A stretch of 64,000 nucleotides of DNA, taken from positions 248,001 to 312,000 of the forward strand of contig JAODMT010000004.1 in the NCBI GenBank assembly GCA_025464975.1, given 5' to 3'. This stretch comes from Microbacteriaceae bacterium (GTDB lineage: Bacteria; Actinomycetota; Actinomycetes; Actinomycetales; Microbacteriaceae). Both the position numbers and the translations under genes were made by a program. How positions within the stretch are numbered: position 1 is the stretch's first letter; every line of letters starts with the position of its first letter. Positions 1,018-46,496 of the stretch are shown here, in pieces. Below the pieces are notes generated by a model that saw only the letters and a list, made by a program, of their open reading frames with translations, searched no databases and was not told where the DNA came from.

Positions 1018-2037
1018 CTAACTGCCGGCTTTGGCCCATGCGAGGAGCCGGTCGAGCGGCCAGGTGGTGACGATGCGATCCGCCGGCACGCCGTTGGCCT
1101 CGGCGCGCGCGGCACCGTAGTCAAGGAAGCCGAGTTGCCCGGGAGCGTGGGCGTCGCTATCGATGCTGAATAGGCAGCCGGCGTCGAGCGCCAGCTGGAT
1201 GAGCGGGCTCGGAGGGTCCCGTCGCTCCGGCCGGGAGTTGATCTCGACCGCGACATTCTCCCGGGCGCAGGCGGCGAAGACCGCTTCGGTGTCGAAGGTG
1301 GAGGGTGGCCGCGTGCCCCGCGACCCCTCGACGAGGCGCCCGGTGCAGTGACCCAGAATTCTGGTGTGCGGGTCGGCGATGGCTCGCAGCATCCGCTCTG
1401 TCATTTCCCGCGAGTCCATCCGAAGTTTGGAGTGCACACTGGCGACCACGATGTCCAGCTTGTCCAGCAGCCGCGGGGTCTGGTCGAGCGCTCCATCGTC
1501 GAGGATGTCGACCTCGATGCCGGTCAACAGCCGGAAACCGCTGTAGCCATCGTTCAACGCGGCGACGGCATCGAGCTGCTTGGTCAATCGTTCGGCGGTC
1601 AGGCCGTTCGCTACCCTGAGGTTCGGGGAGTGATCCGTCAACGCGAGGTGTTCGTGCCCGAGCCATTTCGCGGTGTCGGCCATCGACTCGATCGAGGTGG
1701 TTCCATCAGACCAATCACTGTGGCTGTGCAGGTCGCCCTTCAGCCGCGCGCGTAGGGCTGCACCCTCGGAAACGAGCGGTCCTGCCGTGCGCTCGCGAAG
1801 CTCGGCGAGATAGTCGGGCACCCGCCCGTCCAGCGCCTGTCGGATGACCGCGAAAGTGGTGCCGCCGATCCCTTTTGTCTTCTGGAGACGACCGTCACCG
1901 GCTTGTTCGGCAAGCTCCCCAGGGGGGATGCCGCCGAGCGCGTTCGCGGCTGTGCGGAACGCCTTCGTCTTGAAGCTTGACGCGAGGTCTCTCTCGAGGA
2001 GGTAGGCGATCTCATTGAGTGCGTCGACGGGGTCCAT
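1018..2037 (-). CDS. PHP domain phosphoesterase with PolX-like helix-hairpin-helix N-terminus
   Basis: This is a 339-residue protein. Residues 1-90 resemble the N-terminal DNA-binding region of X-family polymerases, with a KTKGIGGTTF hairpin motif. Residues 100-335 form a PHP metal-dependent phosphoesterase. Visible metal ligands are DLHSHSDWSDG (His104, His106), ALTDHS, GIEVDIL, ASVHSK, ILGHC and the terminal SIDSDAH. The nucleotidyltransferase domain found in full PolX (about 570 residues) is absent. It may hydrolyse phosphate esters in DNA repair or small molecules; the substrate is unknown. The ATG at 2037 is the natural start. It is convergent with gatB. Confidence 0.85.
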   Translation of the reverse strand: MDPVDALNEIAYLLERDLASSFKTKAFRTAANALGGIPPGELAEQAGDGRLQKTKGIGGTTFAVIRQALDGRVPDYLAELRERTAGPLVSEGAALRARLKGDLHSHSDWSDGTTSIESMADTAKWLGHEHLALTDHSPNLRVANGLTAERLTKQLDAVAALNDGYSGFRLLTGIEVDILDDGALDQTPRLLDKLDIVVASVHSKLRMDSREMTERMLRAIADPHTRILGHCTGRLVEGSRGTRPPSTFDTEAVFAACARENVAVEINSRPERRDPPSPLIQLALDAGCLFSIDSDAHAPGQLGFLDYGAARAEANGVPADRIVTTWPLDRLLAWAKAGS

Positions 2038-2087: not shown

Positions 2088-2164
2088 AAAACGCAGGACA
2101 TTCACCACTCGCTGCGCCGAAGGAGCGGATGTCGCCTGCTTCGGTGGTGAATGTCCTGCATTTT
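2088..2164. repeat. 77-bp palindromic intergenic repeat, copy 1
   Basis: Two 21-base arms (2088-2108 and 2144-2164) are inverted repeats with one mismatch (base 2160). They flank a 35-base loop. The left arm is AAAACGCAGGACATTCACCA followed by C. The same architecture, 77 bp with a 35-base loop, recurs at 45075-45151. The loop contains a smaller inverted pair, CCGAAG/CTTCGG (2117-2122 and 2139-2144). It lies between the PHP gene start and the end of an aldo/keto reductase, so it could act as a hairpin terminator for the latter's transcript or be a REP/MITE-like element. Confidence 0.85.
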
Positions 2165-2177
2165 GTGGAGCGGAAGG

Positions 2178-3209
2178 TCAGCGACCGCCGGTGACGTTCC
2201 GGTTCCGCTGGGCGACACCGGCGGTGCCATAGGGGTAGTCATCCACCCTCGGAGCGCTCGCGGCGGACAGGGCATCTAGCTCATCCGGCGTCAGAACCAG
2301 GTCAACAGCCCCGAGGTTGTCGTTGAGCTGCTGAACAGTTCGGGCGCCGAGGATCACCGAAGTGACGGCCGGTTGTGCCGCAAGCCAGGCCAGGGCCACC
2401 TGTGAAGCGGACGCTCCGTGGGATTCCGCCACGCTCCGCACGAGGTCCACGACCCGCCAGGTGCGCTCGTCCGCGTTCCTCGCCTCCCAGGCTTCCATGC
2501 CGCGCGTGGGGTTCTCCCCGAGGCGAGTCGCTCCCGTCGGATTGACGTCTCGCGTGTACTTGCCACTGAGCCACCCGCCGGCAAGCGGCGACCACGGGAG
2601 CAGCCCGATTCCGGCGTCGAGGGATGCCGGCACGATCTCGTGTTCGATGTCTCGAACCAACAGGTTGTACTGCGGCTGCAAGGTCGCCGGCGGAGTCCAG
2701 CCGTGCGCCTTCGCGACGTGAACAGCTTTCGTCAGCTGCCAACCGAGGAAGTTGGAGAATCCGTAGTAGCCGATCTTGCCGCTTGTCACGGCATCGTCGA
2801 GGAAACGCAACGTCTCTTCGATCGGGGTCAGGGCATCCCAGGCGTGCATCTGATACAGGTCGATGTGGTCAACGCCGAGCCGGGTGAGCGAGGCGTCGAG
2901 GGCCGCGCGAAGGTGGCGGCGTGACAGGCCGTGGTCGTTCGGCCCCTGCCCCATGGGGAATCGTCCCTTGGTGGCGATGACGAGCTGGGCGGCATCGGTG
3001 GGGTGCGCGCCGAGCCAGCGGCCGATGATCTCTTCCGATTTGCCGCCGCTGTACACGTCCGCGGTGTCGATCAGGGTTCCGCCGCCCTCGACGAATGTGG
3101 TGAGGATCTGGCCGGATGCCGCCTCGTCCGCTTCGCTTCCGAATGTCATTGTTCCGAGCGCGACGGTTGAGACGGCGACTCCGGTTCGAGCAAGGGTGGT
3201 GTATTTCAT
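2178..3209 (-). CDS. Aldo/keto reductase
   Basis: This is a 343-residue NADPH-dependent oxidoreductase of the AKR TIM-barrel superfamily, of the size usual for the AKR11-like or voltage-channel-beta-like group. The N-terminus MKYTTLARTGVAVSTVALGTMTFG is typical. Catalytic elements are visible: IDTADVYSGG (Asp and Tyr), VIATKGRFPMG (Lys) and DLYQMHAWD (His). A C-terminal cofactor segment, VTSVILGARTVQQL, is also present. The physiological substrate cannot be read from sequence. The ATG start at 3209 follows an AAGGAGAATC ribosome-binding site. It stands alone, with palindromic repeat copy 1 just downstream. Confidence 0.93.
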   Translation of the reverse strand: MKYTTLARTGVAVSTVALGTMTFGSEADEAASGQILTTFVEGGGTLIDTADVYSGGKSEEIIGRWLGAHPTDAAQLVIATKGRFPMGQGPNDHGLSRRHLRAALDASLTRLGVDHIDLYQMHAWDALTPIEETLRFLDDAVTSGKIGYYGFSNFLGWQLTKAVHVAKAHGWTPPATLQPQYNLLVRDIEHEIVPASLDAGIGLLPWSPLAGGWLSGKYTRDVNPTGATRLGENPTRGMEAWEARNADERTWRVVDLVRSVAESHGASASQVALAWLAAQPAVTSVILGARTVQQLNDNLGAVDLVLTPDELDALSAASAPRVDDYPYGTAGVAQRNRNVTGGR

Positions 3210-44125: not shown

Positions 44126-45019
44126 GTGACCAGTCTCACCGCCCCATTCCGTTCACGGCTCCTCTCCGCCTTTACCGGCAGCACGACTGGACGGCCGGAT
44201 TGGGTCGGACAGATCGAGGCGGGGGACGACGCCGGGTTCTTCGGCGTCGGCTCGGCCGCCTGGGCGGTGCATGGCGGGATGCCGACCCTCGTGGCGGGAA
44301 TTCGGGCGCTGCTGATGCAGACGCTCCATCCCGGGGCGATGGCGGGAGTGCACGATTGGTCGCGCTACAAGGATGACCCGCTCGGGCGGCTTTCCGGAAC
44401 CATTCAGTGGCTGATCGGGGTCACGTTCTCGGACACCGCGATGGCGACCGTCGAGTCGACCCGGGTGCAACGGTTTCACGATCGGGTGCGCGGAACCTAC
44501 CTTGACGCCGATGGGCTGGAATGCGACTACGCCGCCGGGGATGCCGAACTGCTGTCGTGGGTGCACGTGGTTTTCACTGACGCGTTCCTCGGCTGCCACC
44601 TCGTCTGGGGAGGACCGATTCCCGGCGGTCCAGACCAGTACGTGCGGGAATGGGCCACGGCGGGAGAGCTGGTTGGGGTAGCGAATCCGCCCAGATCCCA
44701 GGCCGAACTGCACTCTCAGCTCGACGCGTTCAAGACGGCCGGAATACTGAAGAGCGACGAGCGGGTCGCCGAGGCCGTGCGGTTCATCCGCAAGCCGGGT
44801 CTCGCTACGGGAATGATGCCCGCCTATCGGGTGCTGTTTGCCGGCGCCGTGGCGAGCATTCCGCGACCGTATCGCCGGATGCTCGGGCTGCGTCGCCCGT
44901 GGTGGCCGGCCATTACGGTCACGAGGTCGGTGCTGTGGCTCGTCGGCAGGATTCTCGGCACGAGCTCAACGAGCGAGGTCGCGGCGCGCAAGAGACTCGC
45001 GAGGCTCGGCCTGCTCTGA
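44126..45019 (+). CDS. DUF2236 (MpaB/latex-clearing-like) oxygenase
   Basis: This 297-residue protein of the DUF2236 family has GMPTLVAGIRALLMQTLHPG, AMAGVHDWSRYKDDPLGRLS and GTIQWLIGVTFSDTAMATVE. Heme-binding DUF2236 members include latex clearing proteins and MpaB. The conserved His in LHPG and Arg/Lys of DWSRYKDD are probable heme contacts. GTG 44126 was chosen over GTG 44084. The 77-bp repeat copy 2 lies downstream. Its substrate is unknown. Confidence 0.88.
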   Translation: MTSLTAPFRSRLLSAFTGSTTGRPDWVGQIEAGDDAGFFGVGSAAWAVHGGMPTLVAGIRALLMQTLHPGAMAGVHDWSRYKDDPLGRLSGTIQWLIGVTFSDTAMATVESTRVQRFHDRVRGTYLDADGLECDYAAGDAELLSWVHVVFTDAFLGCHLVWGGPIPGGPDQYVREWATAGELVGVANPPRSQAELHSQLDAFKTAGILKSDERVAEAVRFIRKPGLATGMMPAYRVLFAGAVASIPRPYRRMLGLRRPWWPAITVTRSVLWLVGRILGTSSTSEVAARKRLARLGLL

Positions 45020-45074: not shown

Positions 45075-45151
45075 AAAACGCAGGAGATTCACCACTTGCA
45101 GGCGCCGTTTCGACGCGTCAAGGCGTGGCGGTGGTGAATCTCCTGCGTTTT
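45075..45151. repeat. 77-bp palindromic intergenic repeat, copy 2
   Basis: The two 21-base arms (45075-45095 and 45131-45151) are perfect inverted repeats around a 35-base loop. The left arm is AAAACGCAGGAGATTCACCA followed by C. Compared with copy 1 (2088-2164) the only arm change besides base 2160 is a C-to-G in the left arm matched by G-to-C in the right arm, so pairing is kept. The loop sequence differs. It lies between DUF2236 and dinB. Confidence 0.9.
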
Positions 45152-45245: not shown

Positions 45246-46496
45246 ATGAGCAAGCAGGATGGCAGCAACCGCCAGGTCAGTGCCGCGAGCGTCAACAGCA
45301 GCAGTGCCACGATTCTGCATGTGGACCTTGACGCCTTCTTTGCCTCGGTCGAGTTACTCGATCGACCGGAGTTCGCGCATCTGCCGGTGGTGGTCGCCGG
45401 CAAATCGCTGCGTTCTGTCGTCACCGCGGCGAACTATCCGGCGCGCCAGTTCGGGGTGCGCTCGGCCATCCCGCTCTCGCAGGCCTTGCGAATGTGCCCG
45501 AAAGCGATAGTGCTGGAGCCGCACTTCGAGAAGTATCGGCACTATTCGGCGAAGGTCATGGGAATTTTCGACGAGATCACCCCGCTCGTGGAACGGCTGG
45601 GCATCGACGAGGCCTTCCTCGACGTTTCGGGAGCCACTGGCCTGCTCGGGTCGCCGGCCGAGATCGCGGCACTCATCCGTGCTCGGGTGTTCGCGGAGAC
45701 GCGCCTCACCTGTTCGGTGGGGGCGGCATCCACCAAGTTCGTCGCGAAGCTCGCCTCCGGGCGAGCGAAACCGGACGGGGTGCTTGTCGTGCCGGCCGAG
45801 CAGACGCTCTCCTTTCTGCACCCCTTGCCGGTCGGCGCGCTGTGGGGCGTTGGTGCGGTCACAGAGGAGGCGCTCATTCGGCGTGGACTTCACACGATCG
45901 GGGACATTGCCTCGACCCCGGTCGCGGCGCTGCAGCGCGCCGTCGGCGAGGCGTCTGGCCGCAAGTTGCACGATTTGGCAAACGGGATTGACCCACGGAA
46001 CGTCACGACGGCGGCGGTGGAGAAAAGCGTCGGCCACGAGGTGACTTTCGAGGTCGACACCGTCAATGGTGATGAATTGCGGCGAGAGTTGCTGCGGCAG
46101 GCGAATGCCGTGGCAGTTCGGCTTCGCGCCGCCGGTTGGGTCGGGCGTACCGTCGTGCTCAAGCTTCGCTTCGCCGACTTCAGTACCATCACGCGGTCGA
46201 GAACCCTCGCCGAGTCCACCGATGTCGGCCGTCGAATCTTCGAGGAGGCGCGAGCGATCTACGACGGACTCGATCTGCACCGGCCCGTGCGGCTGATTGG
46301 GGTGCGGATGGAGCAGCTCACCGAGAGCGACGGTCAGCAGCTCGGCCTATGGGACGCTGACGAGGGTTGGCGCGAAGCAGAGGACACGATCGACGCCGTA
46401 AGCGCCCGGTTCGGACGCGGAACGTTGCGGCCGGCGTCACTGCTTAAGTCGACGCCACCGCTTGGCGATCCGCGCAACCTGCCGCGGCAAGAGTGA
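45246..46496 (+). CDS. dinB: DNA polymerase IV
   Basis: This 416-residue Y-family polymerase performs translesion synthesis. The catalytic motif is ILHVDLDAFFASVELLDRPE (Asp and Glu), VVVAGKSLRSVVTAANYPAR follows, then FGVRSAIPLSQALRMCPKAI. The IDEAFLDVSGATGLLG segment holds the second Asp/Glu pair, and LTCSVGAASTKFVAKLASGR is the finger-to-palm strand. The little finger domain begins near TTAAVEKSVGHEVTFEVDT. The start ATG at 45246 is acceptable; no LexA-type box is clearly visible in the upstream 90 bases. Confidence 0.96.
   Translation: MSKQDGSNRQVSAASVNSSSATILHVDLDAFFASVELLDRPEFAHLPVVVAGKSLRSVVTAANYPARQFGVRSAIPLSQALRMCPKAIVLEPHFEKYRHYSAKVMGIFDEITPLVERLGIDEAFLDVSGATGLLGSPAEIAALIRARVFAETRLTCSVGAASTKFVAKLASGRAKPDGVLVVPAEQTLSFLHPLPVGALWGVGAVTEEALIRRGLHTIGDIASTPVAALQRAVGEASGRKLHDLANGIDPRNVTTAAVEKSVGHEVTFEVDTVNGDELRRELLRQANAVAVRLRAAGWVGRTVVLKLRFADFSTITRSRTLAESTDVGRRIFEEARAIYDGLDLHRPVRLIGVRMEQLTESDGQQLGLWDADEGWREAEDTIDAVSARFGRGTLRPASLLKSTPPLGDPRNLPRQE

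What the first reader, a model, noticed from the sequence alone, without database searches (positions are those of the whole stretch)
2088..2164. A 77-bp palindromic element occurs twice with a compensatory arm change
Copies at 2088-2164 and 45075-45151 have the same length, 21-base arms and a 35-base loop. The arms are nearly identical, and the one position that differs between copies on the left (C or G) is matched on the right, so the hairpin is kept while sequence changes. The loops share almost no sequence. Conserved arms with covariation point to selection on a folded or palindromic structure, such as a protein-bound DNA site, a REP-like element or an RNA hairpin. I do not recognise the family.
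Basis: partly seen in the sequence, partly recalled or inferred. Interest (0 to 1): 0.75.

Follow-up and report, generated by a model that had tools for sequence, protein, structure and literature searches.

The report
Dispersed palindromes paired with a nuclease
The 77-base palindromes are two of about fifty copies scattered between genes of this bacterium, and they appear to be the paired DNA sites of a DNA-bending nuclease whose own gene is flanked by them, an arrangement that recurs, with differing sequences, in related bacteria.

Summary
Observation confirmed; "compensatory change" rejected. The genome holds 46 intact copies: two inverted arms at a fixed 52-53 bp start-to-start spacing, mostly between genes, rarely between divergent ones. 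Within an element the arms match no better than arms of different elements (757 of 828 positions; shuffled mean 759), and the loops do not fold beyond shuffles. Instead A/T in the "loop" recurs every 10-10.5 bp (0 of 2000 shuffles): this suggests a duplex bent around protein, not a hairpin.

A gene elsewhere in the genome is flanked by copies: an AbiEi-like DNA-binding protein fused to a Vsr/EDxHD-type nuclease. Across 54 named homologues, 53 of 107 flanking windows hold such a palindrome against 6 of 488 farther windows. Arm sequence follows the protein clade (13 changes; shuffled minimum 22) and differs between paralogues of one genome. It predicted the repeats of other genomes (68 and 44 copies). 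Between two species arms change at 1.4%, loops 13%, flanks 22%. No RAYT was found.

Best reading: a REPIN-RAYT-like partnership built on a non-homologous enzyme and wrapped double-stranded DNA. The partnership is well supported; how copies spread, and what they do, is inferred. I found no description in print.

The parts
2088..2108 (+). left arm of element 1 (AAA + 18-base arm, C at arm position 9)
2109..2143 (.). 35-bp spacer ('loop') of element 1; the set of 40 such spacers has phased A/T
2144..2164 (-). right (inverted) arm of element 1; one mispair at arm position 2
45075..45095 (+). left arm of element 2 (G at arm position 9)
45096..45130 (.). 35-bp spacer of element 2; 2 changes of 35 against the orthologous element of relative G010, whose arms are unchanged
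45131..45151 (-). right (inverted) arm of element 2
1018..2037 (-). host gene beside element 1: PHP-domain protein with a sub-threshold helix-hairpin-helix match (not part of the system)
2178..3209 (-). host gene beside element 1: aldo/keto reductase; element 1 lies at its 3' end (not part of the system)
44126..45019 (+). host gene before element 2: MPAB_Lcp_cat domain protein (not part of the system)
45246..46496 (+). host gene after element 2: Y-family (impB/mucB/samB, DinB-like) DNA polymerase (not part of the system)

Best explanation
Each element is a double-stranded DNA target: two inverted recognition sites (core AAAACGCAGGA, extended here to ATTCACCAC) held at a fixed helical spacing by a spacer that is free in sequence but phased in A/T, so that about 75 bp bends through roughly one turn and brings the arms together. 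The binder is most likely the AbiEi-like/Vsr-EDxHD fusion protein whose gene (G000:C3:584442-585329, outside the window) is flanked by elements on both sides and ends inside the downstream one. The gene stays mostly at a syntenic place; the palindromes are its non-autonomous copies, dispersed between genes, much as REPINs depend on a RAYT. SHOWN: copy number, fixed spacing, A/T phase, arm conservation, the flanking of the nuclease gene in many species, arm type following protein clade, prediction of other genomes' repeats, invariant catalytic-site residues, the fold of the model. INFERRED: that the protein binds and bends the arms (by analogy with AbiEi); that its nuclease drives copying; that arms are kept because bound sites matter to the cell or to the protein.
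For: Copies and fixed spacing. A/T period 10-10.5 bp: 0 of 2000 shuffles here, 0 of 1000 in CGCAGGA elements of other genomes (26 of length 75, 17 of length 74), in 20 of G072 and in 18 of G041. Nuclease gene with elements on both sides in G000, G004 and G006; 54 named homologues: 53 of 107 flanking windows against 6 of 488 far windows (p 1e-38). Arm label on the protein tree: 13 changes, shuffled mean 25.6, minimum 22 of 200. In all six assemblies with two or three homologues in the set, each homologue has a different arm; G034, with both kinds of nuclease, has both kinds of element (6 and 4 copies). Genomes with a close nuclease (E <= 1e-100) carry the CGCAGGA element: 5 of 5 against 1 of 77 others (p 2e-7). 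Prediction: G072 68 copies, G041 44, G053 6, G020 5, and 0 in the five genomes whose flanking arm did not fit the pattern. Arms 7/504 substitutions, spacer 45/350, flanks 86/391. E192, D219, E229 invariant in 42 of 42. Fold: AbiEi 6y8q plus I-Bth0305I 3r3p; one PADLOC AbiEi model matches 35 of 42 at E 0.01. AbiEi binds two 23-bp inverted repeats and bends the DNA (PMC7319586, passages). Copying: a subfamily at unrelated loci shares its spacer and about 20 bp on each side.
Against: No binding, bending or cutting has been measured. 20 of 54 homologues showed no flanking palindrome under the strict test; 12 of these are Frigoribacterium or Curtobacterium, and 7 of the other 8 show one in the looser listing. 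Orphans are needed: G007 (98% complete, 12 elements), G003 (90%, 3) and G010 (64%, 30 arm matches) have no close nuclease. At least four loci (L183, L192, L197, L201) mix two arm types. No clean insertion with target duplication was found: of two G010 elements missing in G000, one is a 175-bp difference between 11-bp direct repeats (a deletion fits as well) and the other is untidy. Of 17 G010 elements 12 are shared intact with G000, 2 survive as remnants, 2 are absent, 1 was not covered, so recent movement is slow. Clade B elements (length 88) show a weaker 10-bp signal, and their best period overall was 15.25.
Confidence: 0.66

Rival explanations
1. Domesticated architecture or insulation sites: the fusion protein (or another host protein) uses the roughly 50 sites to bend DNA at gene ends, for nucleoid folding, supercoil control or repair. 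Copies are kept for the host, and mobility is past.
For: Arms under strong constraint in orthologous copies, spacer and flanks much less; placement at gene ends, 2 of 43 divergent against 12 of 34 window gaps of 90 bp or more, 0 of 20 divergent in G072; nuclease gene mostly in stable synteny.
Against: Copy number runs from 0 to 68 among relatives; comparable housekeeping regions of different species carry elements in different gaps, e.g. next to an uppS-like gene in G033 and not in G049; in G041 3 of 22 are divergent and 5 overlap a predicted gene; invariant catalytic-site residues are not needed for a pure architectural role.
Confidence: 0.2
2. Addiction by titration: binding to the many sites holds the nuclease in check, so loss of arms frees it and is selected against.
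For: Explains point constraint on arms without a function at each site; AbiEi-like part with conserved nuclease residues.
Against: A relative keeps the gene with few exact copies (G004: 4 under the exact pattern); no toxicity data.
Confidence: 0.07
3. Bidirectional intrinsic terminators: A-rich and T-rich ends around a stem at gene 3' ends.
For: AAAA/TTTT ends, strong stem in the consensus fold, position at gene ends.
Against: Arms mispair freely; G041 elements pair consistently only in the outer 11 bases; does not explain a 10-bp A/T phase, fixed length, or arm type following a protein clade.
Confidence: 0.04
4. Ordinary MITEs of an unseen insertion sequence whose ends are the arms.
For: Dispersed; a subfamily shares spacer and near flanks.
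Against: Most spacers are unrelated while arms are nearly identical; no target duplication established; the gene between flanking elements encodes a Vsr-type nuclease.
Confidence: 0.03

Closest known systems
REPIN-RAYT (REPtron) systems
   Same: Short dispersed extragenic palindromes in inverted pairs; a cognate enzyme gene flanked by them; several families, each with its own enzyme (PMC3116915 abstract, PMC3733652 passages).
   Different: Enzyme is an AbiEi-Vsr/EDxHD fusion, not a HUH/Y1 transposase (PF01797 not found); no GTAG end; signal is duplex DNA at fixed helical spacing, not a hairpin; lineage is Microbacteriaceae and perhaps another family of the order.
AbiEi antitoxins of type IV toxin-antitoxin systems (S. 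agalactiae AbiEi, Rv2827c)
   Same: AbiEi fold in the first part of the protein; AbiEi binds two inverted 23-bp repeats and bends the DNA (PMC7319586, passages).
   Different: Fused to a nuclease; arms lie about 35 bp apart instead of 3 or 13; dozens of sites per genome, few of them between divergent genes; no toxin gene was recognised by eye next to it.
EDxHD homing endonucleases (I-Bth0305I) and Vsr
   Same: Catalytic domain fold and conserved acidic residues (H235 invariant only among the 12).
   Different: Free-standing gene with an AbiEi part and dispersed palindromes; no intron or intein seen.
MITEs / terminal inverted repeats
   Same: Small, dispersed, inverted ends.
   Different: Interior mostly unrelated but of fixed length and phase; no target duplication shown.

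Membership tests
REP/REPIN-RAYT | IS200/IS605-type HUH tyrosine transposase in the genome, next to repeats | tested here: not met
   PF01797: 0 matches in own genome (96% complete), 5 of 14 control genomes positive
REP/REPIN-RAYT | GTAG (or CGTC) tag at one end | tested here: not met
   Arm consensus AAAACGCAGGASATTCACCAC; tag as described in PMC3733652 (passages)
REP/REPIN-RAYT | Inverted pair that forms a hairpin under selection | tested here: not met
   No covariation; spacer does not fold beyond shuffles
REP/REPIN-RAYT | Cognate enzyme gene flanked by repeats, dispersed intergenic copies | tested here: met
AbiEi proteins | AbiEi fold (DNA-binding plus second domain) | tested here: met
   6y8q over 193 columns, E 8e-6, TM 0.54 of target; one PADLOC AbiEi model matches 35 of 42; Pfam AbiEi_4 23 of 42 at E 0.1
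Type IV AbiE toxin-antitoxin | Adjacent DUF1814 toxin gene | tested here: inconclusive
   Neighbours read look like housekeeping genes (manA, galE, glyS, dsbA-like; named by recall from sequence), but no profile search for DUF1814 was run
Vsr/EDxHD nucleases | Fold and catalytic residues | tested here: met
   3r3p TM 0.73-0.80 of target, 1cw0, 1vsr; E192, D219, E229 invariant in 42 of 42; residue roles by analogy, not assayed
Homing endonuclease | Cleaves an allele lacking the element, copied in by repair | not testable with these tools
   Needs a cleavage assay
MITE | Target-site duplication | tested here: inconclusive
   One 11-bp direct repeat around a 175-bp difference, one untidy site

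The most novel reading that the evidence does not exclude
A new class of mobile or commensal DNA: a mostly vertically kept AbiEi-EDxHD nuclease maintains and copies a population of wrapped-duplex palindromes, an independent invention of what REPINs and RAYTs do, spread over actinobacterial families with arms and proteins that co-diverge.
Probability: 0.55. Interest if true: 0.9.

Novelty: categorically new. Interest (0 to 1): 0.84.

Why it matters
It gives a partner, and a testable function, to a widespread family of unexplained actinobacterial proteins (DUF559 / MTES_1575 / AbiEi-like), and points to a second, non-homologous solution to the REP-RAYT partnership, one that seems to read double-stranded DNA by helical phase. 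The 54 homologues with about eight arm types form a ready protein-DNA co-evolution set. Proteins of this kind annotated as AbiEi antitoxins may need another look.

Tried and rejected
Hairpin/RNA: the consensus fold pairs only the arms; the 40 spacers fold no better than dinucleotide shuffles (mean z -0.10); no covariation. RAYT: not found. Integron-like cassettes: considered when copies clustered, rejected because the genes between elements look like ordinary housekeeping genes. Target-site duplication: not settled. Replication polarity of the arm asymmetry: no clear link. Pfam named the own nuclease only weakly (DUF559, E 0.042, below its cut-off) and NCBIfam not at all. Spread to another family (f9): loose palindromes 38 in 21.8 kb near against 66 in 62.2 kb far; with 14-base arms 22 near against 13 far, p 5e-6, 4 of 28 loci on both sides, 14 on one, 10 on none; suggestive only, the gene span there was taken as the locus centre. 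Papers: ten searches; no listed title or abstract opening describes DUF559/Vsr-like proteins with dispersed palindromes. The library is open-access PMC only, and one search listed 12 of 1,382 papers. Seen of papers: PMC7319586, PMC3733652 and PMC3710099 passages, PMC3116915 abstract, the rest as listings.

Full report
OBSERVATION. The two copies are real. In the whole genome the 18-base arm has 50 forward and 53 reverse matches at up to 3 mismatches, and none when the pattern is read backwards. Fetching the surroundings gave 46 intact elements, arms 53 bp (40) or 52 bp (6) apart start to start, plus a few damaged or solitary arms.

NOT A HAIRPIN. At arm position 9 the left/right bases are G/G 22, C/G 9, G/C 6, C/C 3 and other 6 of 46 (Fisher p = 1.0 on the 40). 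Position 11 is unpaired in 24 of 46. Real partners agree at 757 of 828 positions, shuffled partners at 759 on average, and 1554 of 2000 shuffles reach the real value. Spacers do not fold beyond shuffles. In relative G041 (18 elements of length 75) position 11 pairs in all, and positions 12-25 in only 0.17-0.67 of elements, yet length and phase persist. In G072 (20 elements) pairing beyond the arm stays higher, 0.35-1.0.

PHASED DUPLEX. In the 40 elements of equal length A/T peaks fall near -7, 0, 11, 21, 31, 41, 51, 61, 72 and 79, symmetric about the centre; within the spacer, spectral power at 9.5-11.5 bp is 0.578 against a shuffle maximum of 0.055 (0 of 2000), and 0 of 2000 again without seven members of a similar subfamily. 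Independent sets agree: 26 and 17 fetched elements of other genomes with the CGCAGGA arm (0 of 1000 each), 20 of G072 (period 10.0) and 18 of G041 (10.25). The second clade, with length 88, shows a weaker signal with A/T at the centre (0.167 against a shuffle maximum of 0.052; its overall best period was 15.25). Lengths cluster at 74-78 and 85-88, about one helical turn apart; two AAATTCAGGA elements of the longer clade are 77.

PLACEMENT. With a home-made gene finder, 43 of 46 elements fall between predicted genes: 17 convergent, 24 tandem, 2 divergent; 3 overlap a prediction. In the window 12 of 34 gaps of 90 bp or more, and 15 of 74 of all neighbouring pairs, are divergent (p = 0.0007 and 0.03); the excess of convergent places is weak (p = 0.05). 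In G072 the 20 elements fetched of 68 are all intergenic and none is divergent; in G041, 22 elements fetched, 3 are divergent and 5 overlap a predicted gene.

PARTNER. A cluster of three elements at C3:584158-585696 encloses a gene; orthologues at 67-68% identity in G004 and G006 lie between elements too. From 12 homologues a scan of named genomes gave 54 loci. A strict test (exact 10-base arm, length 68-90) found an element in 53 of 107 flanking windows and in 6 of 488 windows farther away in the same loci; 19 loci have both sides, 15 one, 20 none. A looser listing shows more. The downstream element overlaps or abuts the gene's 3' end; many tails read ..RKRRR.. in one clade and ..SPEFPK.. in the other, as the arms would encode. 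In most regions read, the gene sits beside a manA-like gene or between glyS-like and dsbA-like genes; L229 is an exception (gene names by recall from sequence).

CO-DIVERGENCE AND PREDICTION. Arm types (AAAACGCAGGA, AAAACGAAGGA, AAAACGACGGA, AAATGACGGA, AAAACTGAGGA, AATTCGACGGA, AAATTCAGGA, AAACTCAGGA) change 13 times on the tree of 56 proteins against a mean of 25.6 and a minimum of 22 in 200 shuffles. 43 rows were labelled, one label each, by hand; 13 rows were left out for want of an arm, and at least four labelled loci carry two related arms. In the six assemblies that contribute two or three homologues each homologue has its own arm. Of 82 genomes shared by two searches, the 5 with a close nuclease all carry CGCAGGA elements, and 1 of the other 77 does (G007). 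AAATTCAGGA elements are found in 12 of 249 family genomes and not here; G034, which has both nucleases, has both elements. A pattern fitting only other arms found 68 copies in G072, 44 in G041, 6 in G053 and 5 in G020, and none in the five genomes whose flanking arm did not fit it (rows for G053 and G020 were not listed, so their arms there were not seen).

PROTEIN. Pfam on 42 homologues at E 0.1: AbiEi_4 23, MTES_1575 REase 22, DUF559 17; PADLOC at E 0.01: one AbiEi model 35, homing endonuclease 4. AlphaFold2 model of L165 (Frigoribacterium MAG): mean pLDDT 89.9. Foldseek: AbiEi 6y8q (E 8e-6), I-Bth0305I 3r3p (TM 0.73-0.80 of target), Vsr. E192, D219 and E229 are invariant in 42 of 42; D231 and D250 nearly so. 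AbiEi binds two 23-bp inverted repeats 3 bp apart and bends them; Rv2827c binds repeats 13 bp apart (PMC7319586, passages). The wider spacing here, with phased A/T, fits a bigger complex wrapping the DNA; this is inference.

SELECTION AND COPYING. Between G000 and G010 (mostly 93-97% identical over the aligned loci) 12 orthologous elements differ at 7 of 504 arm bases, 45 of 350 spacer bases and 86 of 391 flank bases. Spacers of two pairs and one flank could not be scored; one pair (L027/L129) has flanks that hardly align and inflates the flank figure; elements had been found by arm, which biases the arm figure down. Most spacers are unrelated, but 33 of 780 pairs are at least 65% identical (0 in 50 composition shuffles), 27 of them among eight elements. 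Nine elements picked as that subfamily share about 20 bp beyond each end and little farther. So pieces of roughly 115 bp have been copied to unrelated places. Clade B copies also cluster near the gene: of the 12 listed in G237 (13 counted) 11 lie between 1.57 and 1.84 Mb, around the gene at about 1.794 Mb, and in G049 6 of 7 lie within 26 kb of the gene. In G000 no such clustering is evident.

LIMITS. Novelty is judged from ten searches of open-access papers.

Noticed in passing
G000:C3:424321-425151 (L134): A second AbiEi/DUF559-type gene (27% identical); no flanking palindrome was detected. G010 has a similar one.
   Followed up: partly
46 own elements, arm position 11: The arm on the contig + strand has T in 43 of 46, the other arm only in 25 of 46 (A in 19); of 24 asymmetric elements 21 point one way, 3 the other (contigs C3, C10, C16); unexplained, no clear link to gene strand or overall GC skew.
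   Followed up: partly
L157 (G007): A homologue flanked on both sides by another kind of repeat (arm AAATCCATGCATTCTTCG).
   Followed up: no
L285-L314 (family f9 of the order): Homologues in 52 of 61 genomes; several have long palindromes on one or both sides, e.g. L288, L289, L293, L300.
   Followed up: partly
L230:1663-2221 (G154): Three AAATTCAGGA elements in tandem about 237 bp apart.
   Followed up: no
L032 and L035: Pairs of elements 147 and 124 bp apart; the L035 pair looks like a tandem duplication including flanks.
   Followed up: no
G010 contigs C6, C11, C95: Contigs of the draft genome G010 end at or near elements, suggesting that the repeats break assemblies.
   Followed up: no
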